IMG/VR virus record: IMGVR_UViG_3300036770_006429
Location: 1 to 64,000 of that record
Length of the DNA: 64,000 bases
Strand: one strand, 5' to 3'
Source: a virus
Positions 5,023-64,000 of the stretch are shown in pieces. Made by a program: the position numbers and the translations under genes. A model generated the notes under the pieces. The model was not told the DNA's origin. It made no database searches and saw only the letters and a list, made by a program, of their open reading frames with translations. Each line of letters starts with the position of its first letter. Position 1 is the stretch's first letter.

Positions 5023-5559
5023 TTATATTTTTATCGAACAACGGATAATTTTTGTGTATTTATCTTCTACACCATCCTCCATTTTTAATTGAAATATTTT
5101 GTTTAATTCATCCATAGGCATTTCTTGAATAATTTTTTTTGCAACCTCCCGATATAAATTATCAACACCAACAGCCGAAATATCAAATGTACTAAGCTTC
5201 AGATAACTATCGTAAGTGGTTAATTTTTGCGATGGAACTTCCCAGATACATTTACCAAAAAACGGCTCATATCCGTTATTGATAACAGATAATGCAACTT
5301 GTAAAAAATCACCTTCAATTACTACTTCATAACAGCTCTTATAATCAGAGGACCATCGAATTTCATCTATTCTTATGCACGGACGATTTCTCGTGCTTAC
5401 AAAAGAATAAGGCTTATCTACAAAATATTGCATAAGAATCTTTGATGCACTAACTCCGCTTCCCTCGCCAAGTTCAGCAGTAATAAACCTTACTCCATCT
5501 GGAATAGTTTCTAAAGCAATTGGGCATTTATAGCCCCAATTGTTTTCAAAATATGTCAT
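5023..5559 (-). CDS. GKCxW paralogue with C-terminal extension
   Basis: 178 aa from the ATG at 5559 (MTYFENNWGYKCPIALETIP). An upstream Met at 5637 is in frame but lies inside the disrupted zinc-ribbon gene, and the internal ATG overlaps that gene's stop, as expected for coupling. The family domain spans residues 1-115 and ends FFGKCIWEVPS. About 60 extra helical residues follow. Function unknown. Confidence 0.6.
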   Translation of the reverse strand: MTYFENNWGYKCPIALETIPDGVRFITAELGEGSGVSASKILMQYFVDKPYSFVSTRNRPCIRIDEIRWSSDYKSCYEVVIEGDFLQVALSVINNGYEPFFGKCIWEVPSQKLTTYDSYLKLSTFDISAVGVDNLYREVAKKIIQEMPMDELNKIFQLKMEDGVEDKYTKIIRCSIKI

Positions 5560-5779
5560 TGTGTTTGTTTTTGCGCGTTTTTGTATAGCCATATATCTTC
5601 TGCAATTCGGGGGTAATCCTTTTTGGCTCGCATTCACCGCAGAATTTTAAAGTGTGTGCAACTCCTTTATATAAAAACTGCCGAAAACCCAACCATCTTC
5701 AGTGGTTGGGTAGTTCACATTGAACCAACCATTCGCTTGTAGCTTTTTTGCCACAATCATCGCATTTTCCCCGCATCAT
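5546..5779 (-). pseudogene. Zinc-ribbon gene interrupted by a 48-bp transposon scar
   Basis: The minus-strand frame from 5779 reads MMRGKCDDCGKKATSEWLVQ and then enters a 48-bp element (5671-5718) that brings an in-frame TGA. Removing exactly that element gives a continuous frame YKGVAHTLKFCGECEPKR... ending at 5546, about 62 aa, with two CxxC knuckles (CDDC and CGEC). The restored stop overlaps the next gene's ATG. The intact gene would be a small zinc-ribbon protein. The element's boundaries were set independently from three copies, which makes this reading strong. Confidence 0.75.
5671..5718 (+). mobile_element. Non-autonomous IS200/IS605-type element (PATE-like), copy 1
   Basis: 48 bp preceded by TTTAT (5666-5670). 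It starts ATAAAAACTGCCGAAAA, holds the hairpin CCCAACCA-TCTTCAG-TGGTTGGG, and ends TAGTTCAC. Left and right ends match those of the TnpB element at 31482-32831, with one hairpin instead of two. It carries no gene. It interrupts a zinc-ribbon gene on the other strand. Probably moved in trans by an IS605-type TnpA, which is absent from the window. Confidence 0.85.
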
Positions 5780-6346: not shown

Positions 6347-6401
6347 ATTAATCTAATTAAAAACGGTTATCTAATCAGGTTGGGTGTGGCTAACAAAAAA
6401 G

Positions 6402-6489
6402 CGGAAGAGGAGGGATTCGAACCCCCGGTACCTTTTACAGTACAACAGTTTTCAAGACTGCCGCAATAAACCAGCTCTGCCACTCTTCC
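6402..6489 (-). tRNA. tRNA-Ser(UGA)
   Basis: 88-nt class II tRNA. The acceptor stem is GGAAGAG with CTCTTCC and discriminator G. The D stem is GCA/TGC. The anticodon arm is GCAGT-CTTGAAA-ACTGT with anticodon TGA. The long variable arm closes with GTAC, and the T loop is TTCGAAT. No CCA is encoded. This is the only tRNA in the window that folds fully canonically by eye. Confidence 0.93.
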
Positions 6490-7307: not shown

Positions 7308-7637
7308 TTATGGCCTTTGCCATATAGCTTTCCCAAATTCAATTTTTCGACCCCCAGTGTGCTTCAGGACTCGCAATCTAATCTCTTCTTCTTGTTCCGG
7401 TTCAAATGCAATGTGATGTTCGTAATTTTTATCTGGGTCATCGCTTAACCACTTGATTTCATTGTACGGTTCTGCGACAAAAGGAAATGGCATTCCTTTG
7501 AATGCGCTCACAATATATATTAAACCCATTTCTGCGCCCCGAATATAATGGTTGCGCTTATTTAAAGCCACCCACTTGTATTCTTTTGGAATTAAATCCC
7601 AGCTCAAAGGCATTTCGTAATCAAAGTGGTTTTTCAT
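7308..7637 (-). CDS. GKCxW paralogue family member, compact form
   Basis: 109 aa and close to the minimal domain. It begins MKNHFDYEMPLSWDLIPKEY, has KGMPFPF and NEIKWLSDD in the middle, and ends EFGKAIWQRP. It is most like the 207-aa protein at 8004-8627. No signal peptide, so cytoplasmic. The Cys of the ending is Ala here, so that Cys is not essential to the family. Function unknown. Confidence 0.65.
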   Translation of the reverse strand: MKNHFDYEMPLSWDLIPKEYKWVALNKRNHYIRGAEMGLIYIVSAFKGMPFPFVAEPYNEIKWLSDDPDKNYEHHIAFEPEQEEEIRLRVLKHTGGRKIEFGKAIWQRP

Positions 7638-7648
7638 GGCTTTGTGTT

Positions 7649-7858
7649 TTATTTTAAAGTTTTAATATAATCTTTCACCAAATCACCGCAGTAAAAAGTG
7701 CTAACCAACAAATCATCTCCATTTTCGATAATGGAATATTTTTGGCGATTTTGTTTTGCGAATTCGACGAAATCAGATTTAACAAATCTTTTTTCATCTT
7801 TACGCATGTCGGAAACTTGCTCATGTCGCTCACCTACCCAATTTACCGAATGTTGCAT
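7649..7858 (-). CDS. Small hypothetical protein, 69 aa
   Basis: Begins MQHSVNWVGERHEQVSDMRK; Met 18 is an alternative start. It is a mixed alpha/beta protein without known motif. It is the first gene after a well-formed host-type promoter (7895-7925) and is followed 11 bases later by a GKCxW paralogue. Confidence 0.55.
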   Translation of the reverse strand: MQHSVNWVGERHEQVSDMRKDEKRFVKSDFVEFAKQNRQKYSIIENGDDLLVSTFYCGDLVKDYIKTLK

Positions 7859-7894
7859 ACTTTAATGTTTTATGGTTTCGTAAAAATAACACCA

Positions 7895-7925
7895 CAAAGA
7901 TACGGCGTTTTTTTGGATAGTGCAA
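7895..7925 (-). promoter_or_regulatory. Bacteroidota-type promoter
   Basis: On the minus strand TTG, 20 bases, TATCTTTG. This is the exact Bacteroidota housekeeping-sigma arrangement. It points at the genes starting at 7858 and downstream. Confidence 0.75.
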
Positions 7926-7956
7926 TTTTTTTTGAAAAATTTTATGCTTTTTTTAT

Positions 7957-8003
7957 ATAAAAGAGCGTAAACCCCAACCATCTTCAGTGGTTGGGTAGTT
8001 CAC
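7957..8003 (+). mobile_element. Non-autonomous IS200/IS605-type element (PATE-like), copy 2
   Basis: 47 bp preceded by TTTAT (7952-7956). It starts ATAAAAGAGCGTAAA, has the same hairpin CCCAACCA...TGGTTGGG, and ends TAGTTCAC. Its right edge abuts the stop codon of the minus-strand gene 8004-8627 without altering it. The first 15 bases are more diverged than in copy 1. Confidence 0.85.
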
Positions 8004-8627
8004 TTATGAAATTTCTGAATTGCGCTTGTTTTCATCCAAATCCTTATCTAAAGGAAAATTTTTACTTTCAACTTTTGGTAGGTTTTCAAATTCTTCATTT
8101 GTGTAAAGTTTGTAACCATCTGATTTTAACAAGTCAAATCTTTTAGCAGCATATTTTAGTGCGTTATTGTAGAAAGCCATTGTTGAGTTTGGCTTATTCA
8201 GAGTTGGTTTAAATATATCGGACATAGTGTCTATGCTATCTAACAATCGCCACAATTGTTCCGCAATCTCCCTCATAGAGGGGCTATCGCCATTATATGG
8301 CCTTTGCCACAAAGATTTTCCAATATCAATTTGATTTGCATCCAAATGTTGAAGAATATGCTTTCTAATTCTCACAGAATCAGAAAAATCAAATCTAATT
8401 TCATATTCATTTGACTCTTGTTCATCACTGACCCAAATTATCTCATCATCAAACAATGGATATGGCATCTTTTTAAAGCCATTTAAAACATAACTCACTC
8501 TAATTTCCCCTATCATATATTCTTTTCCTTCTGGAAAATCGTAGGTAATATTCAAAGCAACCCACTTATATTCTTCTGGAATATCATCCCAACTTATTGG
8601 CAACTCGTAATTGAAATCGTTTTTCAT
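8004..8627 (-). CDS. GKCxW paralogue fused to a helical C-terminal domain
   Basis: 207 aa from the ATG at 8627 (MKNDFNYELPISWDDIPEEY); a longer frame upstream lacks family similarity. Residues 1-110 are the family domain, ending DIGKSLWQRP. Residues 115-190 form a second domain (REIAEQLWRLLDSIDTMSDI, then RFDLLKSDGYKLY) that I have seen in other phage proteins of unknown role. The stop codon is exactly at the edge of transposon scar copy 2. Confidence 0.65.
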   Translation of the reverse strand: MKNDFNYELPISWDDIPEEYKWVALNITYDFPEGKEYMIGEIRVSYVLNGFKKMPYPLFDDEIIWVSDEQESNEYEIRFDFSDSVRIRKHILQHLDANQIDIGKSLWQRPYNGDSPSMREIAEQLWRLLDSIDTMSDIFKPTLNKPNSTMAFYNNALKYAAKRFDLLKSDGYKLYTNEEFENLPKVESKNFPLDKDLDENKRNSEIS

Positions 8628-8637
8628 TGTTTTATTT

Positions 8638-9045
8638 TTATGGGCGTTTCCAGATACATTTTCTAACATCAATTACCGTGTCTTGGGTATGGCGGATTGT
8701 GTGGTTTTCGAGAATCTCATATTTGTAATCAACAAATTCATGTCTGTGATTTTCGTTGTTTTTGATATCCCAAATGAAACCAACATTTTTTGTGAATAAT
8801 GAATCCGGCATCTCCTTTGTATTGTTGACGACAAGCATCACTTTTGTAACCACCTTATCCGTTTCGTTATCATATTCCTGATATTCTTCTCGGTGCATGG
8901 TGATGAATTTGTATCTCTTTGGAATTTCATTCCAAATCAATGGACAAATGTAACCATGTTCATTTCTAACTTCTTTTGTTGGTTCTTGTTCGCAACCAAA
9001 CAAAAGTAGAGCAATTGTACAAAAAGTTAATGTTGTTGTTCTCAT
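8638..9045 (-). CDS. Lipoprotein member of the GKCxW paralogue family
   Basis: 135 aa. Residues 1-18 are a lipoprotein signal peptide with a lipobox-like LLLFGC (Cys 18). The mature domain reads NEHGYICPLIWNEIPKRYKF and ends DVRKCIWKRP, like the cytoplasmic paralogues. A lipid-anchored copy beside cytoplasmic copies is unusual and suggests the same domain works in different compartments. It lies 10 bases upstream of the 8004-8627 gene. Function unknown. Confidence 0.7.
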   Translation of the reverse strand: MRTTTLTFCTIALLLFGCEQEPTKEVRNEHGYICPLIWNEIPKRYKFITMHREEYQEYDNETDKVVTKVMLVVNNTKEMPDSLFTKNVGFIWDIKNNENHRHEFVDYKYEILENHTIRHTQDTVIDVRKCIWKRP

Positions 9046-9248: not shown

Positions 9249-9262
9249 ATTAGTATTTTTTG

Positions 9263-9345
9263 ATGCCGAGAGTGGAATCGAACCACCTACCTTTGTCTCT
9301 TGCAAATAAACGCTCACCAACGCGCTACCAATGCGCCACTCGGCT
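9263..9345 (-). tRNA. Atypical tRNA, possibly Ala(UGC)
   Basis: The 5' end AGCCGAG pairs with CTCGGCA (1-72 mismatched), followed by TG and a perfect D arm GCGC-ATTGGTA-GCGC. The T stem is GGTGG/CCACT with loop TTCGATT. The stretch between D and T arms is about 11 bases too long. TTGCAA could place UGC as anticodon, with an imperfect stem GTTTA/GAGAC. The insert repeats the D-arm sequence (GCGTTGGTGAGCG), suggesting a small duplication. A CDS ends inside its 5' end. Confidence 0.6.
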
Positions 9346-24596: not shown

Positions 24597-25508
24597 TTAA
24601 TATATTGAGTAAAAATTATTGATACTATTGTTCATTCCTCTTATAACCGAGCTCTTATTGGAGCCATATAAAATTACCTCTTGTAGTGTTCCTGAAATTC
24701 CATTAAGAGATGACGTCGTGGAACTACTGGCTCCGATAATTCCAGAATTATAAAGCGGTGTCCACTCGAAATTGTTATCCCATATCCTATAAAATTGCGC
24801 TCCATTAGTGCCTGCTCCACTCCATGTGCCCGCATAAATTCTATAAGTCGTAAGCGGTACAGGTACATTGTTAATGTTGATTCCCGTTGACCCGCCCCTT
24901 GTGCTGTTTGGTGAAGCGGCAACCAACAGCCTTCCATAGCTTACGTCGTTGTGCATTATGGCGATATACATACTAGTTGCCGCAGATGGATTTCCAATGT
25001 CAAGATAATTTTGATACTGAGGTAAAGAATCCCTTTTCGTAACAATAAAATGTGTTGCAGCGGTAAGGCTAATCTCCGCAAATTCAAGCCTGTCGTTGAT
25101 GCCATCCCATTTCAACGCGACTTTAGACCCCTGCTTAATCAATGCGCCTGAAGCAATAATCTGCGGCTGATTTGCATCTGTCGTCATTGTGGCGTTCCTG
25201 CCGTTGCCGGATTGGTCAAACCACACGCGCACAAAGCAATTATTCGCCCCGCAAAACGTTTTCATCGTCGCGGTATCGAGATAGTCGTTCACGAACCCTA
25301 TCGTGTCAAGTGCATTGTCATTGCTTCGTCTAACAACAACGCAACTGTCGCCGTAATCCTTGTCAAGTTTTCTTAGCGAAAAAGCCACCTCTGCACTTGG
25401 GTATTCATCTAAAAAAAGTATATCATAAAACCTATCAACATAAATTTGACCAAAAATATCGGATGCCAAAATAAAAAAAAAGAAAAATAAAAAATATCTT
25501 ATATTCAT
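24597..25508 (-). CDS. Exported arabinofuranosidase-B-like protein, paralogue 1
   Basis: 303 aa from the ATG at 25508. Residues 1-20 are a signal peptide (MNIRYFLFFFFFILASDIFG, then Q). The mature part starts with a short segment (LDEYPSAEVAFSLRKLDKDY). It continues with VRVWFDQSGNGRNATMTTDA and a jelly-roll-like region with ALKWDGINDRLEF, resembling the alpha-L-arabinofuranosidase B catalytic/lectin-like family. In phages such domains are usually fibre-tip or adhesin modules. Two tandem paralogues lie upstream. Catalytic residues were not checked. Confidence 0.7.
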   Translation of the reverse strand: MNIRYFLFFFFFILASDIFGQIYVDRFYDILFLDEYPSAEVAFSLRKLDKDYGDSCVVVRRSNDNALDTIGFVNDYLDTATMKTFCGANNCFVRVWFDQSGNGRNATMTTDANQPQIIASGALIKQGSKVALKWDGINDRLEFAEISLTAATHFIVTKRDSLPQYQNYLDIGNPSAATSMYIAIMHNDVSYGRLLVAASPNSTRGGSTGININNVPVPLTTYRIYAGTWSGAGTNGAQFYRIWDNNFEWTPLYNSGIIGASSSTTSSLNGISGTLQEVILYGSNKSSVIRGMNNSINNFYSIY

Positions 25509-25512
25509 GTTG

Positions 25513-26463
25513 TTAATATATTGAGTAAGCTCTATTAATATTGTCATTTATCGCGCTGCGATTTGACGTTTGATCGCTTTTATATATAATAATTTCCTGT
25601 ACTTTTCCATTAATAAAATTGACTGAACGGCTGTGGTCGTACATTATACCTTTTAAACTTGTTGGTTCTGTTGTAGAACCCCATCCGCCAAAGGAACTAT
25701 TGGTAAGTGTTTTGAGTTCATTATTTCGATATAATGACGGCGCAGCGTTAGGGAAAATAAATGAATACAAATTATTAGATGCCGCTATGTTTTCGCTTGT
25801 TTCGCCGTATCCCCTTACGGTTACATCCTGCAATGTAAGAATAGAAATTCTTTCATTCGTTAATGTTGCGGTCCAGTTTCCACCAAAACCAACGGATAAA
25901 AATGCGTTTTCATTTCCTGAAATGCCAGTGAAAAAAGCTCCAGTAATGCTTGTGTTATTGATTTCATTTGTATTTCGAAAAACAAAAAACCAAGAAAAAG
26001 CATTGCCATTAAATAATACCGCGCTATCCATTACAAGTCGGTCGTTGGTTCCGTCAAATACCATCGTAGCGTTACTGCCATCTTTTTCAAGTACGCCTGA
26101 AGTCAATATTCTTGGTTGATTAGCGTTAATTGTTGATGTTGTATTATTAGCATTTCCGCTCTGATCGAATACCCTTCTTACCCAGCAGCTATCTCCCGCG
26201 CCCGTACCGCAAAAGTTTTTTAAACTTATTGTGTCAAGATAATTATTCCTAAAACCTATATTGATTGTATCGCCATTAACTCTTCTAACAGTAACACAAA
26301 AACCAGTATAATCTTTGTCTAACTTGCGCAAGGAAACCGCTACCGCCGCCGAAGGAAATGAATCCAATAAAAGATCAGAATCAAACCTATCAAAATATAA
26401 TTGCCCAAAAATATCTGATGCCAAAATAAAAAAACAAAAAAATAAAAAATATCTTATATTCAT
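25513..26463 (-). CDS. Exported arabinofuranosidase-B-like protein, paralogue 2
   Basis: 316 aa from the ATG at 26463; the frame is open 20 codons upstream but the signal peptide (MNIRYFLFFCFFILASDIFG) fixes the start. It has the same order as its neighbours: SAAVAVSLRKLDKDY, an FCG-Cys pair, RVFDQSGNANNTTSTINANQ and MVFDGTNDRLVM. The N-terminal 60 residues are highly conserved among the three, while the C-terminal half varies, as in receptor-binding proteins. Confidence 0.7.
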   Translation of the reverse strand: MNIRYFLFFCFFILASDIFGQLYFDRFDSDLLLDSFPSAAVAVSLRKLDKDYTGFCVTVRRVNGDTINIGFRNNYLDTISLKNFCGTGAGDSCWVRRVFDQSGNANNTTSTINANQPRILTSGVLEKDGSNATMVFDGTNDRLVMDSAVLFNGNAFSWFFVFRNTNEINNTSITGAFFTGISGNENAFLSVGFGGNWTATLTNERISILTLQDVTVRGYGETSENIAASNNLYSFIFPNAAPSLYRNNELKTLTNSSFGGWGSTTEPTSLKGIMYDHSRSVNFINGKVQEIIIYKSDQTSNRSAINDNINRAYSIY

Positions 26464-26467
26464 TTTT

Positions 26468-27421
26468 TTAATATATCGAATAAAATGTATTAATGTTTGT
26501 TTGCATACCTGTTCTATCGCCACGTTTGTCAGAATTGTAAATAATAAGTTCTTTTATACCCCCGTTAAGGAAATTAGCTGAAGTTCCTACCGAACCGATA
26601 CCAAGGTTATTTGAAGCATTATTTGTTGTTGGAAGGGCAGTTCCCGCATTGTTTTTTATCGCGACTCCGTTATTAATGTAGTTTTCACTTCTATTTTCCG
26701 GAATTGAATTATCCGCATCCGTAAAACCAAAAATCAAAAAATGTTCAGAATTTATAAGTGGATTATCGTTGCTATAATTACCAACTGGAAATAAAAAAGG
26801 ATTTACAACCACCGAACCTAAGTTGTTAGGAATAGAGTTCGACTCCCAAAGAACAAACCCAATGTCACTCCCAGTTACCCGATTAGTACCAAAAAAAATC
26901 TGACCTTTTACCACATTTTTGTGAGCCACCAGCAAAAAAGTTGAAAAACTACCATTATGCATAAAGTTATAAATCGCAGTGCTATTATTCACACTCATAA
27001 GGTCATTAGTACCATCAAAATCAGCAATCACATATCCCTCATTGCGCACTATTGTTCCAGCATTTACAATGGTCGGCATATTTGCTTTAGTCTCCTGAAC
27101 AAAGTTCCTGCCATTACCAGTTTGATCGTACCATGTTCTAATACGACAACTATTGCTACCACAAAATCTTTTTAAAGCAACGGTATCTAAAAAATTACCA
27201 GCAAAACCAATATTGCTAGTTAAATCTCCGGTACTATCCTTCAATACTTCAACACATCGTCCAGAGTAACCGTCACGCAGTTTTCTAAATGAAATAGCCG
27301 TATGAGCATTGCCGAACTCATCTAAAAATAAACTAGGGTCAATACGATATATGTATGCTTGCCCAAAAATATCAGAAACAAAAATAAAAAAACAAAAAAA
27401 TATAAAATACCTTATATTCAT
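26468..27421 (-). CDS. Exported arabinofuranosidase-B-like protein, paralogue 3
   Basis: 317 aa with signal peptide MNIRYFIFFCFFIFVSDIFG. It contains AHTAISFRKLRDGYSGRCVE, FCGSNSCRIRTWYDQTGNGR and ADFDGTNDLMSVN. Position 4 bases upstream of paralogue 2 and 32 bases downstream of a fourth exported protein shows one operon. Probably a surface or virion sugar-binding protein; no enzymatic claim. Confidence 0.7.
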   Translation of the reverse strand: MNIRYFIFFCFFIFVSDIFGQAYIYRIDPSLFLDEFGNAHTAISFRKLRDGYSGRCVEVLKDSTGDLTSNIGFAGNFLDTVALKRFCGSNSCRIRTWYDQTGNGRNFVQETKANMPTIVNAGTIVRNEGYVIADFDGTNDLMSVNNSTAIYNFMHNGSFSTFLLVAHKNVVKGQIFFGTNRVTGSDIGFVLWESNSIPNNLGSVVVNPFLFPVGNYSNDNPLINSEHFLIFGFTDADNSIPENRSENYINNGVAIKNNAGTALPTTNNASNNLGIGSVGTSANFLNGGIKELIIYNSDKRGDRTGMQTNINTFYSIY

Positions 27422-31003: not shown

Positions 31004-31246
31004 TCATATGATAATTGCACAAGTTAAATCACAATCGGATTTAAAAAAATATTTGGTGCATTTTTCATGACCAGATATATGTTCAAAGATGAATTTAAAA
31101 TCTTTTGAATTTCCGCTTTCACTCAATATCGAAAAATTTCTTTTTGAAAAAGTAATATCTCCACTAACTTTAATCAAATCCGAAGCCGATGCTATTAATC
31201 TATTTTTTTCTCTGTGATATTGGAAAAGATTTCCCGGATATATCAT
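31004..31246 (-). CDS. Hypothetical protein, 80 aa
   Basis: Begins MIYPGNLFQYHREKNRLIAS; strand-rich with three Cys toward the C-terminus (HEKCTKYFFKSDCDLTCAII). Its start overlaps the stop of the interrupted metalloprotease gene by 4 bases, so the two were once coupled. No family recognised. Confidence 0.55.
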   Translation of the reverse strand: MIYPGNLFQYHREKNRLIASASDLIKVSGDITFSKRNFSILSESGNSKDFKFIFEHISGHEKCTKYFFKSDCDLTCAIII

Positions 31247-31481
31247 TTAATTCTGAAATTTTTTCTGACTTCCTTCCAGCAATCTTTATATAGAGTTAAC
31301 TCATTATTAATTGCCTCAGCCTCATAAGGATTATCTCTCCATGGTAAATTGCGATATTTGTTATATTTTGTTTTTATCGGTTGCAGTGTGTGGGTATATT
31401 CGTGAATGATTGTTTGAACGAAATCTCTTATGTATTCATTATTTTTAACGTAAATCGTCATTTTGTTTTTATAAGGCTCAT

Positions 31482-32831
31482 GTGAACTACCCAACCACTG
31501 AAGATGGTTGGGCTTCCAGATTATAAGTATCTGGAACTTTGGAAGTTTCATCGGTTGTGCCAACTGGTGTTGGTCTTATTTCACCTCCACTTCTGTAATC
31601 GGATGTCCCGTCCGATATTATTTTACATCCTTCTTTGAGGATATTTATGCTTGCGTTCAAATCTCTATCCAAATTTGTATTGCAGGATGGACAAGTCCAT
31701 TCCCTCATATCCAATTTTAGATTTTGATTTATATATCCACAACAATTGCATGTTTTGGAACTCGGAAAAAATCTATCAATCTTGACAATTTCTTTATCAT
31801 TCCATTCTGCTTTGTAAGTCAAAAGTTCTATGAACTTTGACCAACTAACATCGGCAATGTGTTTTGAAAGTTTATGATTTTTCATTAATCCCTTAACGTT
31901 CAAATCTTCCAATATGATTTTATCATATTTTCTGATTAACTCTGTGGATATTTTGTGCAAATTATCTACACGAGAATTGGTTATTTTCTTGTGTAGCTTT
32001 GCAACTTTCAATCTTTGTTTTTCGTATCTTTTTGAGCCTTTCTTCTTTCTGCTCAGATGTTTCTGAGCATTTTTGAGTAAAGTCTGATATGTTCTTGTGT
32101 ATCTATTGTTTTTATACCTATATCCGTCACTGGTTATAACAAAATCTTTTATGCCCAAATCGATTCCAACAATTTTCCCTGTTTTCGGGAGTTTTTTATG
32201 TTCCGTTTCAACAAGAATTGAGACAAAATATTCATTTGTCGGGGTTTTTGAAATTGTGCATTGCTTAATGGTTCCAGTAAATTTTCTGCTTAGGATTAAA
32301 TCAATTGGTTCTTTAAACTTAGGTATTACTAATTTTCCATTCTCTAATTTCACTGACTGTGGAACAGAAAATGAACTCCTGTTTCGTTTTGATTTGAACT
32401 TTGGAAATCCTTTTTTAAATTTAAAAAAGTTTTTATATGCGGTTTCCAAATTTTTCAACGCAGTTTGTAGTGATTGCGAATTGATTTCGTTTAACCAATA
32501 ATAGTTTTCTTGTTTTTTTAATTCCGTTAATGCTTTTGCATTATCATAATAGTTAATAGTATTTTTGTTATCTTCATATTCCTTTTTTCTTTCATTAAGA
32601 AAAAAGTTATAAACAAATCTAATGGAACCCAGATGCTTATTCAAAAGCACCTTTTGTTCATCATTAGGTTTAAGTTTATATTTATATGCTTTTAACATTT
32701 ATCAGAAATTCATTATATATGATAAATACATTTTAATTTATTAAAAGTTCATATTTATTAAAAATTTAACAATTATTTAACAACCTTTCATCCCAACCAC
32801 TGAAGATGGTTGGGTTTTCGGTTGTTTTTAT
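31482..32831 (-). mobile_element. TnpB-only IS200/IS605-type element (1350 bp)
   Basis: The left end (32831 on the minus strand) follows TTTAT and reads ATAAAAACAACCGAAAA plus the hairpin CCCAACCA...TGGTTGGG (about 32792-32815). The right end repeats the hairpin (31491-31513) and stops at TAGTTCAC. Edges are defined by comparison with the two 47-48 bp scars and by restoration of the host gene. Only tnpB is present; the Y1 transposase TnpA is missing from the window. The reRNA/omegaRNA is expected over the tnpB 3' end, with its guide starting at 31481. Confidence 0.9.
31487..32698 (-). CDS. tnpB: TnpB RNA-guided nuclease
   Basis: 403 aa, usual TnpB length. The N-terminal OrfB helix-turn-helix part (MLKAYKYKLKPNDEQKVLLN) is followed by the split RuvC domain: GIDLGIKDF (Asp), ILEDLN (Glu), zinc ribbon CNCCGY...CPSC, and DRDLNASINIL (Asp). 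All catalytic residues are present, so it should cleave. TnpB uses an RNA from the right end as guide and needs a short motif, here probably TTTAT. The last codons (QPSSVVG) and the stop lie in the right-end hairpin. Its likely target is the empty donor site, promoting element retention. Confidence 0.93.
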   Translation of the reverse strand: MLKAYKYKLKPNDEQKVLLNKHLGSIRFVYNFFLNERKKEYEDNKNTINYYDNAKALTELKKQENYYWLNEINSQSLQTALKNLETAYKNFFKFKKGFPKFKSKRNRSSFSVPQSVKLENGKLVIPKFKEPIDLILSRKFTGTIKQCTISKTPTNEYFVSILVETEHKKLPKTGKIVGIDLGIKDFVITSDGYRYKNNRYTRTYQTLLKNAQKHLSRKKKGSKRYEKQRLKVAKLHKKITNSRVDNLHKISTELIRKYDKIILEDLNVKGLMKNHKLSKHIADVSWSKFIELLTYKAEWNDKEIVKIDRFFPSSKTCNCCGYINQNLKLDMREWTCPSCNTNLDRDLNASINILKEGCKIISDGTSDYRSGGEIRPTPVGTTDETSKVPDTYNLEAQPSSVVG

Positions 32832-32995
32832 ATAAACCCATGAAAGCAGAAATATCGTTTGTTATGCACAAGCTCTGCCTTATCTTGTGCCTTTTGTTGA
32901 CGCCCAAATTATTCTCAAGCCAAAACAACGTATGTTTTGCAATATCCAAAAGCTCGTCAAGAGTTAAAGTTTCGGTTTTTCGAATCAATGAATAC

Positions 32996-33187
32996 TTATG
33001 GCGCATGGTTTTTTCTTTTATATTCAACAAATGGTGCAACCAACAAAATCAATAAAGTTATTACAAAAGGAATCGGCCTTGATATCACTATCAAAGCCCT
33101 GTCTTTAACAAAAAATACATCCGCAACAGCAAATGCAAATATCAAACAAATAATCAAATATGATACATATATAAATATTCTGAACAT
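32996..33187 (-). CDS. Small membrane protein, 63 aa
   Basis: The start at 33187 (MFRIFIYVSYLIICLIFAFA) is preferred; the frame is open 13 codons more but would then overlap the upstream gene. Two membrane helices (residues 1-22, 36-54) and a basic end YKRKNHAP. It overlaps the start of the interrupted metalloprotease gene by 11 bases. Function unknown. Confidence 0.6.
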   Translation of the reverse strand: MFRIFIYVSYLIICLIFAFAVADVFFVKDRALIVISRPIPFVITLLILLVAPFVEYKRKNHAP

Positions 33188-58077: not shown

Positions 58078-60852
58078 TCAACAAACACCTATCGGTGACC
58101 CCACAATACCATTGTTAGGATTCAAAATATAAATAGTATTGTTATATTTTATATATTGATATTCCAATAAAATATTATTATCAATCGTGTAAATTACACT
58201 GTTTGTTACAAAAAATGGTGTATTCATATAACCCGGTATAATGGTCGAAGAACATATATCGTTTAAATTATTGGAAACAGCAAAACTTATAGGATATTTG
58301 CTAAAAGTAGGTGGCGCAACCGTGCTAAGATAATTAAGATTGTGTTCATCTATCTTAACTGGTAAATTGTCCCAAATTACACTGCAACAAGAGCAACCAG
58401 AATATATAAGCGAAGACAAACTGATGTATGTTTCTTGGGAAACCAAAGTTGCACATCCATTAGGTGCCAATTGACCATTTATTATATTGATGTATGATGT
58501 TGTCATCCCAGAGATAACATCATTTGCACCCATAGTAATACCATAAGAGTTAACTTTTGTTCCCTGTATTATGTTATAAGGCACACAATTTGGTCTGACT
58601 GTTGTCACTTGATTTGTAAATGAATCAGTTGGGGCAACATAAACATTGTTTTTATATACATTAGTTGTTGATTCAGTAGTACCACTTCCCGGCTGATAAA
58701 TTTTAGATATCGAATTAGCATCTATGTTAAATGACAAATTTGTACCTACTTCAATCTTTGGGTCCACATCTATGACCCATTCTATTTGCTTGACCGTACT
58801 ACTTATCGAATTGAATTTTAAAATTTTTATGGATATGTTATATACGGTATTAGTATTATCATAAGTTATTGTAGTTAATTTATTATTTGTCTTGCCAGAA
58901 CTATCTATAACCGAAGCAACATATGTTCCCTGACACAAGTTTGTAAAGAAACTTGAAGACTTATAATTTAACCCACCATCAATAGAATACGCATAAGGCG
59001 CAGATCCACCTAAAACATCTATATTTATTGCGCCGTTACAATTATTTATATCATTGCACTTAGTATTTGTTTTTTGAATATTCAAAATCATTGGCGGAGT
59101 AGTACATGCTCCTTGTTGAACAAATACATCCGCAGTTGAACTGCCACCAGCAATAAACCAACCATTATCTGGTATAAGAGAATTTGTTTTTGAAACTAAT
59201 ATACCATCAAATACTGTTAAACCTCTAATTTCCCAACGGCTATTGTTTGAACTCCAATATATTTGATTTACACCACCATCATAAGACCAACGAGGTTTGT
59301 TGTTTTCGTAACCGTAAAAAATAAAAGCCCTTGTTATTGGTAGTAAATTATTACCAACCAAATAAAGACATAGATTTGGATATACGGTAGTAGGTGTCGG
59401 TGTATTTGTATTTGTAGGTGTTAACGTAGGTGTCGGCGTAGGTGCAATCAAAGTACAAGTTGTACTTGCCGAGAAGTCACCATAAAAATCAACAACCGTA
59501 ACACTATATTGACCAAAGTTTAAGTTATTTATAAAATCACTTCGTTGACCATTAGACCAATAAAAACTATAAGGCGGCGTCCCGCCCGTTACAACTAAGT
59601 TTAACGAACCATCAAAGGATGTTGATGTGGTCGGATTAGTTGGTATACATCTAACACCAAGAGGAAATAACGTGAAAAAATCACACTCATTTTTAGTTGT
59701 GTATGCTATACTTGGCGTTACAAATGGTGTTGGTGTTGGCGATATGCAATACGTACTGCCTGTAATATAACCATCTGGATCAACACCATAACAAATATTA
59801 TCTTTGACAAATCTAAATTCATTTGTCACAGCCCAGCTATTAGATACATCGTTTTGACAATTCGTCTGCCCTATAAAGTAACGCGCACCAATAGAACCAT
59901 TAAATGATGAATATCTGCCATAAATACCGCCAAAAGTCCCGACATTGCACACATAATCACAACCAAAATTATTTAAATCCCGCTTAACACTAAAAACTTG
60001 ACACCCAAATGGAGAAGCCGTCGGTGTAACAGTTCCCGTCATTGTTGGTGTTTTAGTTGTTGTTGGCGTATTAGTTTTTGTTATCGTATTTGTTGGTGTC
60101 TGGGTAATTGTGGGTGTATTCGTCGGTGTAATTGTGTTAGTAGGGGTCTGTGTGGGCGTAATAGTGTTAGATGGTGTAATAGTGGGTGTAGGTGTTAAAC
60201 CTACGGTATTACTTGGTGTCAATGTAATAGTATTAGATGGTGTAATCGTTGGCGTTGGTGTATTAGTGCTTGTTGGTGTCGCACTTAATCCAATAGTATT
60301 ACTTGGGGTCAGTGTAATAGTGTTAGATGGCGTAATCGTTGGCGTTGGCGTGGGAGTAGGTGTTGAAGTTTCTGTGGTCGTAGGTGTGACAGAACATACT
60401 GCCTCATTATTTAAAACACCAGAATTTCCCATCACAGACCATACTTTAACCCCGTCTGAATAATACCCATTCGGGGCAAAAGTGCTAAAACCAGAATCAC
60501 TATAAATTGTCACACCAGTTGATAAAGTGGTGTAAAATTGCGTGTAATATGTAGAACAATCAATGCAAGGAGGGCCGTATCCGTTACAAGCATCAGAGGC
60601 ACTAACATTGCTATAATTTAATATAAAGCTTTCATAACATAACCCTAAATCACTAAGCGTCGCTATTCCGGGTGGACTAATACTGACTGCATTTTCTTCG
60701 CAAGAACAAAAATTATAACTGTTCCCAGCAACAACTACATGGTCTATAATTGCACCGGAATCACAATTTTTATATTGTACGGTAACATTTTCTGATAGTG
60801 ACCCGTTTACTAACAAATACGATTTACAACTCTGACTACAACTTAATGGCAT
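58078..60852 (-). CDS. Large tail protein with Thr-Pro linker, 924 aa
   Basis: The N-terminal 165 residues are Cys-rich ([20 protein letters not shown]). A low-complexity linker from about 165 to 280 repeats units such as [19 protein letters not shown]. Further beta-domains are separated by short TPTPT linkers, e.g. [20 protein letters not shown], an SprB-like repeat seen in Bacteroidota adhesins. No signal peptide. Probably an extended fibre or baseplate-attached adhesin. The linker DNA is a degenerate tandem repeat and may recombine. Confidence 0.75.
60010..60375 (-). repeat. Tandem repeat coding for Thr-Pro-rich linker
   Basis: Degenerate 18-30 bp units on the plus strand of the type GGTGTAATAGTGTTAGATGG, encoding T-P-T/S-N-T-I on the minus strand. 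Several near-identical blocks (two copies of the [11 protein letters not shown] unit) show recent duplication. Confidence 0.8.
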
Positions 60853-60863
60853 ATATTATTTTT

Positions 60864-61082
60864 TTATTCGACATATGTTATGCCAGATATAATACTGTTA
60901 TTTGAATCTATAATTTTTAACATATAAGCATTGTACTTATCATTAGGCGACGGTATATAAAATTCATAATTTGCTACATCTATCCTATCTATATAAAAAC
61001 AATTTTCACCATTTATATCACAGACATAAACATCATAAGGGCTTTGCCCTGTTATAGATAATATATTTACAAGAGCACTCAT
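60864..61082 (-). CDS. Small structural-type protein, 72 aa
   Basis: The start at 61082 (MSALVNILSITGQSPYDVYV) is preferred; an upstream in-frame start would overlap the next gene. It contains CDINGENCFYIDRIDVANYE and ends GITYVE. Similar short proteins with GxSPYDVYVCD occur among the TP-repeat tail genes of related phages. A single beta-domain, maybe a fibre subunit. Its start overlaps the upstream stop region at one base distance. Confidence 0.65.
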   Translation of the reverse strand: MSALVNILSITGQSPYDVYVCDINGENCFYIDRIDVANYEFYIPSPNDKYNAYMLKIIDSNNSIISGITYVE

Positions 61083-61083
61083 A

Positions 61084-63051
61084 TTAACAACTATTACAAT
61101 TAAAATATATTGCAGAAGCAAACCCAGCAAAATAATTGCCCAAAAAATCTATTTGGGTTGCGCCAATAGGGTTAACATAAGATGCCGGATAAATACCAAT
61201 ATACTCCCAACAATTATTATAAGAATCTTTAACAACATTTCCAATAGTCAGCCCCGATACATAAGGTTCTGTTTGTTTAATATATATCAAATCTGTTTGC
61301 TCTGGTAATATAAAACAACTTTTAAAAACGTAAACCATATTCGAAGAAACAGACGGCGTAGGTGTTATTGTCGGTGTTAAGGAAGGTGTTATCGTTTGTG
61401 TCAAACTTGGCGTTTGGGTTGGTGTGACAGTACAAATTGAGCAATTACCATAAAAATCGATTACATTTTCTATATATGCGTTAGGACTAAAATCCAGAGT
61501 ATCACCAACATATTCCAAACAAAAAACATTAGAGTTTATTTCACATTTAACAACTTGACCAATTGTTATTCCAGATAAATTATAAACGATATTCTGACCA
61601 ATATAGTAAAGTTCATTTGTCGAACAATCGCGCATAACTTTAGATGATACCGAATCAAATGTTTTATCAAATAATGTGAAATTTACTGAGCCAGAAAATG
61701 AAACTGTTTTTGTTAAAGTCAATGAAGGTGTTGGCATAGGTGTTGTCTGTGTTGGCAATTCAGTAGAAACAATATTAAAATTAACACCAACAATTGGCAA
61801 TGGTGTGCTACTTAATGTAGGTGTCGGAGTATTAGTAGGTGTCTGGGTAATCGTTGACGTAACACTAGGCGTTGGGAGAAAGTCACATTCAAAAATTGCA
61901 TCAAAATCAACAACACTATAAGATGTTGGCGTAGGCGTTACTGTAGGACAAAGTCCACCAGAAAAAACCCCGCTATTGAAATCCGGACACGAACTTAAGC
62001 ATGGTGATGACCCTTTTATTAAACAAGAACCACCTAACGTGGAAGATAAACACCATTCAATACCATCAAAATATATAAATCCGTTTGAAATACCATTTCC
62101 CTGATAATAATTTCTATTATTATATGTGCCACCACTTACATAATCTCCAGAGTAATCTCTTAATAAATCAATGTTTGTCCTAAAACAATATTGACTCTGT
62201 TCGCAAATTGGAATAGTAGGCGTAACTGTAGGTGTTGCTGAAGGTGTTAATACTGGTGCTGACGGTATAGGAGTACAAAACGCACAATCTGCATAATCTG
62301 GTGTACCCAAATCTGGACCTCCGGGACCTGAAAATTCAATAAAAGAATAACAGTTACCCTGATAAATGTAAACAGCCCCCAAGAATGCAGTATCTTCATC
62401 GACAATAGCATAAAAAATAGAACTATCAGAACATTTTTGTAATAGCGCAGCTTTGCTACATGATTGATTACAAACATTCTGAGAAACGTTTATGCCGAAA
62501 TATTCCTTAGATGTATCAACGCAAGCGTATTCACCAACACTCGTACCATAAACAATGTCTCCGCAGTAATTATAATATGACCAACCAGTTGTCCCTGTAG
62601 TAACACCAGAATAAGATGGACACTGTAATTCTTCTGTGATTATTGCTGAAGAGCCATCATAAACATTCGGCAACTGTTCAAAAGGAATTAGTGTGGCAGA
62701 ACCAGTAAAAGAACCGCTGACTATATAATATACATTACCAACATCTAAAGTAGATGTCAATCCACTTAATATAAATTTATTCGTGCTATCATCACACTGT
62801 TGAAACGCATATAAAGAATCGCAACAACCTTCAAGACCGTATATAATAGATGGTGGCACAATCGGAGTGCCAATAGAGCAAATCGTAACAACATTTCCAG
62901 AACCCAAATCTTGAAAAATAGTAGAACTATCTACGCAAGAAGTATAACTAAATGTATCAGTTGTCACCCCTTCATTACTTAGGGCATACTTACAACAATT
63001 GGTTGAACAGAATGTCGTATTACAAGTTGGAGCTGGAATTCCTGATGCCAT
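61084..63051 (-). CDS. Cys-rich tail protein with Thr-Pro linkers, 655 aa
   Basis: It begins MASGIPAPTCNTTFCSTNCC. At least four repeated Cys-rich domains of roughly 70-80 residues (each with QC/KCSDS-type and YQGNCYSF-type segments) are divided by TPT linkers near 275, 375-440 and 540-565. It is paralogous in design to the 924-aa protein and the partial gene upstream. No signal peptide. Probable extended fibre or adhesin part. Confidence 0.7.
   Translation of the reverse strand: MASGIPAPTCNTTFCSTNCCKYALSNEGVTTDTFSYTSCVDSSTIFQDLGSGNVVTICSIGTPIVPPSIIYGLEGCCDSLYAFQQCDDSTNKFILSGLTSTLDVGNVYYIVSGSFTGSATLIPFEQLPNVYDGSSAIITEELQCPSYSGVTTGTTGWSYYNYCGDIVYGTSVGEYACVDTSKEYFGINVSQNVCNQSCSKAALLQKCSDSSIFYAIVDEDTAFLGAVYIYQGNCYSFIEFSGPGGPDLGTPDYADCAFCTPIPSAPVLTPSATPTVTPTIPICEQSQYCFRTNIDLLRDYSGDYVSGGTYNNRNYYQGNGISNGFIYFDGIEWCLSSTLGGSCLIKGSSPCLSSCPDFNSGVFSGGLCPTVTPTPTSYSVVDFDAIFECDFLPTPSVTSTITQTPTNTPTPTLSSTPLPIVGVNFNIVSTELPTQTTPMPTPSLTLTKTVSFSGSVNFTLFDKTFDSVSSKVMRDCSTNELYYIGQNIVYNLSGITIGQVVKCEINSNVFCLEYVGDTLDFSPNAYIENVIDFYGNCSICTVTPTQTPSLTQTITPSLTPTITPTPSVSSNMVYVFKSCFILPEQTDLIYIKQTEPYVSGLTIGNVVKDSYNNCWEYIGIYPASYVNPIGATQIDFLGNYFAGFASAIYFNCNSC
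61340..61430 (-). repeat. Thr-Pro linker repeat
   Basis: Degenerate tandem coding repeat (plus strand GGTGTTATTGTCGGTGTTAA-type) in the 655-aa gene; encodes TPTQTPSLTQTITPSLTPT. Confidence 0.7.
61720..61880 (-). repeat. Thr-Pro linker repeat
   Basis: Second TPT-coding repeat block in the 655-aa gene, encoding segments such as [20 protein letters not shown]. Confidence 0.7.
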
Positions 63052-63120
63052 GTTTTATTTAAACCCAATCATTTTTTTAACTATCCAAAAACTTAATATG
63101 GTCGAAGTTACGTTATATTT

Positions 63121-63129
63121 TATAAATAT
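63121..63129 (-). promoter_or_regulatory. ATATTTATA box, candidate phage promoter element
   Basis: The coding-strand sequence ATATTTATA lies in the gap between two tail genes, about 70 bases before the ATG at 63051. The same box recurs upstream of the genes at 1072, 11745, 18182, 18259, 30952, 36870, 38737 and 40302. Its role is inferred from repetition only. Confidence 0.35.
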
Positions 63130-63143
63130 AGTAGTTTATGAAA

Positions 63144-64000
63144 TCAAATGGGACATTTTAATTCAGCAATCCAAAATGTGCCGTCCAACGGAGCAGTGAC
63201 AGTTAATGTTGCCGTAGACGGTGAAGAAGTTGTTTTCGTAAAAGAAGCACTGCCTTCGGCCACCCCAGAAACATCTGGATATCCTAACGCATTTAAATCT
63301 GCATTGTATGTATCTGAACCCCTAAATCCAGTATCTATAACTGTATTGCCATTCCAAGAAACAACAAATTTATCTGGGATTGAAAAAGCATTATAATTTA
63401 AAACCACTTCGCCAGTATTTTGGCCCAAATCAATTGTCACGGTGAAAATACCTCTACCAGAACTACCTTCCCACGCATTTGTATCAATAATCTCATCGCA
63501 AGTAGTAGAACTAAAAAATAATGAAAATGGTGTGGCTGATGGTGTTACTGTATTCGTTGGTGTTATAGTGTTTGTTGGTGTTATTGTATTAGTAGGAGTT
63601 GCAGTAATCGATGGACTAATAGTGATAGATGGTGTTATAGTGTTTGTTGGAGTTAGTGTCGGCGTAATTGTCGGTGTAGGTGTAGATGTTTGCGTTATAG
63701 CACAAATAGTCGTACCAGTAATGTCCCCGTTCTGATTAACACCATAACATTTTTCATCATAACCAATGAATCTATAATCTGTGGTCCAATCAATTGCACT
63801 CGAAACACAAGAACTTTCATTTAGATATAGTCGTTTTGTGGGATCCCATTGTGGTGACTGAATCCAAACAGGTTCAGTTAAATTAGTTGTACTACATATT
63901 TCATCACAATTTTGGGTGATGAAGTTATTACTTACCTTTACAGTATATGTACTACAGAACACAGGTGTTTTTGTTGGCGTTACCGTATTCGTAGGCGTTA
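63144..64000 (-). CDS. Tail protein with Thr-Pro linker, partial (start beyond window)
   Basis: The frame is open through the window end. A GTG at 63962 could be read as a start, but the codons before it (TPTNTVTPTKTPV) are again TPT linker, so the gene continues upstream. The visible part has a Cys-containing domain (CDEICSTTNLTEPVWIQSPQ), a TPT linker (about 63535-63700), and a C-terminal jelly-roll-like domain with STTCDEIIDTNAWEGSSGRG and NGNTVIDTGFRGSDTYNADL. It is the third member of this tail family. Confidence 0.75.
   Translation of the reverse strand, partial: TPTNTVTPTKTPVFCSTYTVKVSNNFITQNCDEICSTTNLTEPVWIQSPQWDPTKRLYLNESSCVSSAIDWTTDYRFIGYDEKCYGVNQNGDITGTTICAITQTSTPTPTITPTLTPTNTITPSITISPSITATPTNTITPTNTITPTNTVTPSATPFSLFFSSTTCDEIIDTNAWEGSSGRGIFTVTIDLGQNTGEVVLNYNAFSIPDKFVVSWNGNTVIDTGFRGSDTYNADLNALGYPDVSGVAEGSASFTKTTSSPSTATLTVTAPLDGTFWIAELKCPI
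63530..63700 (-). repeat. Thr-Pro linker repeat
   Basis: Plus-strand units of the form GGTGTTATAGTGTTTGTTGG encode [20 protein letters not shown]. It is the cleanest tandem block of the window, with 18-bp periodicity. Confidence 0.75.

What the first reader, a model, noticed from the sequence alone, without database searches (positions are those of the whole stretch)
31243..33006. Exact excision of the TnpB element restores a metalloprotease reading frame
The 1350-bp element (31482-32831) sits between TTTAT and ATGAGCC. Joining these flanks gives GGT TTA TAT GAG CCT, in frame, and fuses the upstream 59-aa part to the HEYTH-containing part. The element therefore inserted into a functional phage gene, leaving no target duplication, as IS200/IS605 elements do. 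The TnpB active site is intact and its predicted guide (starting at 31481) reads the restored empty site next to TTTAT. A phage protease gene is switched off and could be switched on by excision, while TnpB would cut the empty copy.
Basis: partly seen in the sequence, partly recalled or inferred. Interest (0 to 1): 0.75.

Follow-up and report, generated by a model that had tools for sequence, protein, structure and literature searches.

The report
TnpB transposon splitting a phage protease
A small RNA-guided transposon (TnpB type, no transposase of its own) has landed precisely inside a metalloprotease-like gene of a bacterial virus, and two 47-48 base remnants of the same transposon sit elsewhere in that virus, one of them splitting a second gene; this is a clean case of a known kind of mobile element, with no evidence that it acts as a switch.

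Summary
A 1350-bp TnpB element (31482-32831, minus) lies 3' of TTTAT inside a 137-codon gene. Joining the flanks gives an open frame that matches 67 distinct uninterrupted phage homologues; in all 67, exactly 8 residues run from G57 to N64 across the joint. The gene encodes a small SprT-like HExxH metallopeptidase (putative). TnpB is intact in sequence (D180/E264/D346 align with the ISDra2 triad); the occupied right flank shows TTCAC instead of the TTTAT motif. The first splits a zinc-ribbon gene; two related phages have the empty site, gap-free, with TTTAT kept. Twelve more such solos occur in 11 IMG/VR contigs; none was found in bacterial genomes. The 'switch' part is not supported: no Y1 transposase (TnpA) in this contig or 24 related phage records, and no excision data. 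Best reading: a TnpB-only (IS1341-type) IS200/IS605 element, moved by TnpA in trans, retained or spread by TnpB cutting empty copies, with decay to solos as described in Haloquadratum (PATEs). New member of a known kind.

The parts
31482..32831 (-). Complete TnpB-only IS200/IS605 (IS1341-type) element, 1350 bp
   Evidence: Ends defined by uninterrupted homologues across the joint and by ends shared with related elements
31487..32698 (-). tnpB, 403 aa, RNA-guided nuclease; D180, E264, D346 align with ISDra2 TnpB D191, E278, D361; stop codon is the TAG of the terminal GTAGTTCAC
   Evidence: Pfam OrfB_IS605, Cas12f1-like_TNB, HTH_OrfB; PDB 8bf8/8h1j ISDra2 TnpB E 4e-84; residue mapping
32832..32836 (-). 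TTTAT, target / transposon-associated motif left of the element
   Evidence: Sequence; same motif left of relatives, of all but one solo (TTTAC in L024a) and of a bacterial TnpA+TnpB relative
32792..32814 (-). Left-end hairpin CCCAACCATCTTCAGTGGTTGGG
31490..31512 (-). Right-end hairpin, the same 23 bp as the left-end hairpin
31482..31486 (-). Right cleavage pentamer TTCAC
31466..31481 (-). Predicted guide portion of the omegaRNA (flanking gene DNA)
   Evidence: Inference from the ISDra2 rule (PMC8612924); not measured
32832..33006 (-). 5' part of the interrupted SprT-like metallopeptidase gene (58 codons + 1 base)
31243..31481 (-). 3' part of the same gene, with HEYTH and E112
5671..5718 (+). 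Solo (terminal-only) derivative 1, 48 bp: left end + one hairpin + right end; TTTAT at 5666-5670
5719..5779 (-). 5' part of a zinc-ribbon gene (first CxxC) split by solo 1
   Evidence: L054 (77%) and L055 (71%) are uninterrupted
5546..5670 (-). 3' part of the same zinc-ribbon gene (second CxxC)
7957..8003 (+). Solo derivative 2, 47 bp, abutting the stop codon of ORF 8004-8672; TTTAT at 7952-7956

Best explanation
A TnpB-only IS200/IS605-family element inserted once, precisely 3' of TTTAT, into a phage SprT-like metallopeptidase gene, using a Y1 transposase (TnpA) supplied in trans by the host or a co-resident element (inferred). Its TnpB, guided by an omegaRNA whose 3' end reads the right flank, would cut sister or co-infecting phage genomes that still have (or have regained) the empty TTTAT|ATGAGCC site, so that the element is retained and spread like a gene drive in the multi-copy phage pool (inferred from ISDra2 and plasmid work). 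The element's own right flank is preceded by TTCAC, not TTTAT, so it would be spared (sequence shown, effect inferred). Deletion between the two identical 23-bp hairpins yields 46-48 bp terminal-only solos; two are present here. Shown: anatomy, empty-site homologues for the full element and solo 1, intact TnpB residues, no TnpA found. Inferred: mobilisation in trans, omegaRNA, cleavage, drive, origin of the solos.
For: 67 of 67 homologues keep the exact spacing across the joint. The predicted fold of an intact homologue puts the joint in the beta-hairpin just before the HExxH helix, with SprT-like matches in BFVD. Solo 1 has gap-free empty sites in L054/L055 that retain TTTAT, with a syntenic neighbour gene. 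TnpB domains and triad. Related elements in other phages share TTTAT, hairpins and GTAGTTCA(N). A Bacteroidia genome has TnpA diverging from TnpB between the same kind of ends, TTTAT ... GTAGTTCAC, a plausible source of TnpA. The L016 element also interrupts an ORF (116 aa when joined). Precedents: PMC8612924, PMC11870625, PMC3119063.
Against: No expression, cleavage or excision data. No TnpA in the record or its relatives, so mobilisation in trans is unproven; records may be fragments. The outer left parts of the two solos differ from the full element (2 to about 7 bases), so they did not come by a simple deletion from this very copy.
Confidence: 0.8

Rival explanations
1. Reversible switch: excision turns the protease on and insertion turns it off, as a selected regulatory device.
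For: Both gene halves are free of stops and frameshifts; exact removal would restore a conserved ORF.
Against: No TnpA in the contig or in 24 related phage records; the 67 intact homologues show that the normal state is uninterrupted; a solo splits another gene too, so targets look incidental; open halves are equally expected from a recent insertion; TnpB would remove excised copies.
Confidence: 0.05
2. Passive passenger: the element is a recent, now immobile hit with no present activity; the gene is simply dead and will decay.
For: No TnpA; single full copy.
Against: TnpB is intact in sequence; two related solo copies in the same contig show that the family has moved in this lineage.
Confidence: 0.12
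3. About the solos (compatible with the main explanation): they are themselves mobile miniature elements (single-hairpin, PATE/REP-like) moved by TnpA in trans, rather than leftovers of full insertions.
For: Near-identical 46-bp solos at two sites in L024 and at further sites in L028, L031 and L033, after TTTAT or TTTAC; hairpin covariation with 22 two-sided changes, 0 of 500 shuffles as high; 9 of the 11 other solo-bearing records have no detectable TnpB of this kind.
Against: Repeated insertion of full elements followed by hairpin-repeat deletion gives the same picture; the Haloquadratum authors could not separate the two either. Records are partial.
Confidence: 0.4

Closest known systems
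ISDra2 (IS200/IS605) and its TnpB
   Same: TnpB domains and catalytic triad; insertion 3' of a pentanucleotide without duplication; subterminal hairpins; guide = right flank; motif read again as TAM (PMC8612924)
   Different: Motif TTTAT rather than TTGAT; no tnpA; phage-borne, inside a phage gene
IS1341-type (TnpB-only) IS605 elements
   Same: TnpB without adjacent TnpA, between IS605-type ends
   Different: Found here in a phage, with its nearest relatives in other phage contigs
PATEs / 52-bp terminal-only ISHwa23 of Haloquadratum walsbyi (PMC3119063)
   Same: About 50-bp product of a 1.4-1.5 kb TnpB element: two ends fused at one palindrome, no target duplication, several sites
   Different: Phages in IMG/VR rather than an archaeal chromosome; 46-48 bp; different sequence
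TnpB gene drive in plasmids (PMC11870625)
   Same: Multi-copy replicon in which TnpB cutting of IS-free copies would favour IS-bearing ones
   Different: Shown for plasmids; only inferred for this phage
SprT-like small phage metallopeptidases
   Same: HExxH helix; fold match to SprT-like phage proteins in BFVD, best E 3e-10 to 3e-9
   Different: Below Pfam/PHROG cut-offs or barely matched; activity unknown; interrupted here

Membership tests
IS200/IS605 family, TnpB-only (IS1341-type) group | TnpB with OrfB_IS605 and TNB zinc-ribbon/RuvC domains | tested here: met
   far above cut-offs; triad intact
IS200/IS605 family, TnpB-only (IS1341-type) group | Subterminal imperfect palindromes instead of terminal inverted repeats | tested here: met
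   The same 23-bp hairpin near both ends
IS200/IS605 family, TnpB-only (IS1341-type) group | Insertion 3' of a fixed 4-5 nt motif, no target duplication | tested here: met
   TTTAT kept; empty-site homologues align without gap
IS200/IS605 family, TnpB-only (IS1341-type) group | No tnpA in the element (a full IS605 would need it) | tested here: met
   PF01797 search of the whole record: none
IS200/IS605 family, TnpB-only (IS1341-type) group | omegaRNA from the right end with its guide in the flank | tested here: inconclusive
   Right-end 3' region conserved in related elements; no RNA data
PATE (terminal-only derivative) | Non-coding, palindrome(s) near the ends, no inverted terminal repeats, no target duplication | tested here: met
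   for solo 1; solo 2 has the anatomy but no empty-site relative was found
PATE (terminal-only derivative) | Mobilised by a transposase in trans | not testable with these tools
   Needs a TnpA assay
SprT-like/zincin metallopeptidase (interrupted gene) | HExxH zinc motif plus a conserved downstream acidic residue | tested here: met
   H85, E86, H89 and E112 invariant in 67 homologues; ligand role of E112 inferred
SprT-like/zincin metallopeptidase (interrupted gene) | Proteolytic activity | not testable with these tools
   No assay

The most novel reading that the evidence does not exclude
A phage-adapted branch of TnpB elements spreads among phages as an RNA-guided gene drive without its own transposase, and its 46-48 bp single-hairpin solos are independent mobile units confined to phages.
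Probability: 0.15. Interest if true: 0.65.

Novelty: new member of a known kind. Interest (0 to 1): 0.38.

Why it matters
It gives a sequence-complete, testable TnpB locus in a phage: one insertion whose empty site is fixed to the base by 67 homologues, with its own target and protected flank. Phages are multi-copy replicons with strong recombination, the setting in which TnpB drive was shown for plasmids, so this locus could test such drive in viruses. The 46-48 bp solos, seen here in phage contigs and, by one pattern, not in about 85,000 bacterial and archaeal species genomes, would be among the smallest mobile units if they move on their own.

Tried and rejected
Frame restoration as sole evidence: rejected, about one in three joints is open. 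Element ending at TTCA: rejected, would give a stop at the joint. Solo pattern in bacterial genomes: two hits, both chance (no proper hairpin, wrong lengths); covariance search of 296 genomes of the phylum of one of them: none (stricter filters, no positive control). Neighbouring 716-aa protein and ORF 8004-8672 as probes for near relatives: none. Protease and solos in named phages: no match or only chance matches. Protease profile in PDB by sequence: none; by fold only weak (selecase, PprI). Solo RNA as a guide for TnpB: considered and rejected, because solos lack the conserved right-end RNA region upstream of the hairpin. A second guide target in the window: none.

Full report
What is there. 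The window is 64,000 bases of a 65,248-base virus record of a tailed phage (tail tube, sigma factor, SbcC/SbcD-like proteins, primase, RNA ligase). On the minus strand a 1350-bp element, 31482-32831, carries tnpB (31487-32698). Its ends are TTTAT|ATAAAAACAACCGAAAA-CCCAACCATCTTCAGTGGTTGGG-ATG... and ...GAAG-CCCAACCATCTTCAGTGGTTGGG-TAGTTCAC|ATGAGCC. The two hairpins are the same.

Does exact removal restore a gene? Joining the flanks in a script gives a 137-aa ORF. Frame alone would be weak evidence: 143 of 441 nearby joints stay open. Homologues decide. Five loci found with the 3' part alone encode uninterrupted proteins that also match the 5' part. A profile search found 169 relatives, of which 80 loci were kept; 67 distinct intact ORFs of 100-220 aa all have exactly eight residues from G57 to N64, around the joint at Y59/E60; G57 is invariant, Y59 93%, N64 96%. 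If the element ended one base earlier (TTCA) the joint would read TCA TGA. So the right end is TTCAC and no bases were gained or lost.

What the gene is. H85-E86-x-x-H89, P110, E112 and A115 are invariant. An intact homologue (L095) was folded with 22 locus sequences: mean pLDDT 85, joint in a beta-hairpin (57-60/65-69) just before the HExxH helix 76-91. The best viral matches are small phage proteins, two of the top three named 'SprT-like', E 3e-10 to 3e-9; PDB matches are weak (selecase, PprI). Pfam matches are below cut-off and PHROG matches marginal. It is a putative SprT-like/zincin metallopeptidase; activity is untested. The 3' fragment keeps HEYTH but lacks the conserved N-terminal residues.

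What the element is. TnpB hits the OrfB_IS605, TNB and HTH_OrfB models and the ISDra2 TnpB chains (E 4e-84). D180, E264 and D346 align with positions 191, 278 and 361 of an ISDra2-like chain. Related phage elements (52-82% identity) share TTTAT, the hairpins and GTAGTTCA(N); among solos the last base C, T or A goes with the subfamily. The right-end RNA region (for example GTGGAG...AAATAAGACCA) is conserved, as expected for an omegaRNA. No Y1 transposase lies in this record or in 24 related records. In bacteria, one Bacteroidia genome has a TnpA diverging from a 53% identical TnpB, between TTTAT|AAAATGGAGCGTAAAACCC-hairpin and hairpin-GTAGTTCAC, the same kind of ends; so a TnpA for such ends exists in possible host lineages.

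Searching the record with the element gave hits at 5666-5710 and 7970-8003; the hairpin occurs four times in the window against 0.02 expected. Each solo is TTTAT + left end + one hairpin + TAGTTCAC, 48 and 47 bp. Solo 1 splits a CxxC...CxxC ORF; L054 and L055 (77% and 71% identity) are uninterrupted, align at the DNA level with no gap at the joint and keep TTTAT, and the next gene is syntenic. For solo 2 no relative was found. Twelve further solos lie in 11 IMG/VR contigs, with hairpin covariation (22 two-sided changes; 0 of 500 shuffles as high). The pattern gave only two chance matches in the genome collection. Records of L054-L056 hold no copy. Just such products, a 1500-bp TnpB element reduced to 52 bp by deletion between near-terminal palindromes, are described in Haloquadratum, where the authors also ask whether they move (PMC3119063).

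How it most likely works. Insertion 3' of TTTAT used a TnpA in trans (inferred). ISDra2 TnpB is guided by right-end RNA to cut DNA next to its motif, which is proposed to favour restoration of the element from the sister copy (PMC8612924), and in plasmids TnpB acts as a gene drive against IS-free copies (PMC11870625). The same logic fits a multi-copy phage genome. The occupied right flank reads TTCACATGAGCC, two mismatches from the target with its motif, so self-cutting would be avoided. None of this was measured here. A regulated on/off switch is not indicated: the gene is normally uninterrupted, other targets are hit as well (solo 1; the L016 element in a 116-aa joined ORF), and no transposase is at hand.

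Limits. The record and its relatives may be fragments; 'no TnpA' holds for what is on record. The solo census used one pattern, so it is a lower bound and biased to this subfamily. The protease homologues are about 30-40% identical, so the exact ancestral DNA at that joint is inferred from spacing and frame; for solo 1 it is seen at the DNA level. Whether solos move alone or derive from full insertions cannot be separated with these data.

Noticed in passing
window ORFs starting at 1072(+), 10663(-), 11745(-), 15424(-), 16872(-), 39479(-), 39937(-), 40302(-), 46878(-): Many otherwise different proteins begin with a similar short stretch (MKILITEDQLRWLI.EG, MKIIITESQLNLLT, M..L.E....I.KE..E), which recalls, from memory, T4 capsid-targeting sequences cleaved by the prohead protease.
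   Followed up: no
window 7308-9045: Tandem paralogous small proteins (7308-7637, 8004-8672, 8638-9045; about 26-42% identical) of unknown function, next to solo 2.
   Followed up: partly
window 24597-27421: Three consecutive paralogous secreted-looking proteins (MNIRYFLFF...DIFGQ).
   Followed up: no
window 58078-63962: Large structural-looking proteins with long threonine/proline repeats ([13 protein letters not shown]).
   Followed up: no
L029 465-517 (+) and L030 about 4600 (-): The same solo at the same site in two IMG/VR contigs with nearly identical flanks, so solos can be kept after insertion.
   Followed up: partly
L016: Another phage TnpB element (1366 bp) whose exact removal joins a 116-aa ORF with cysteine motifs.
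   Followed up: partly
window 6401-6489 and 9262-9345: tRNA-Ser(TGA) and tRNA-Ala(AGC) genes by ARAGORN; only the first is confirmed by Rfam.
   Followed up: no
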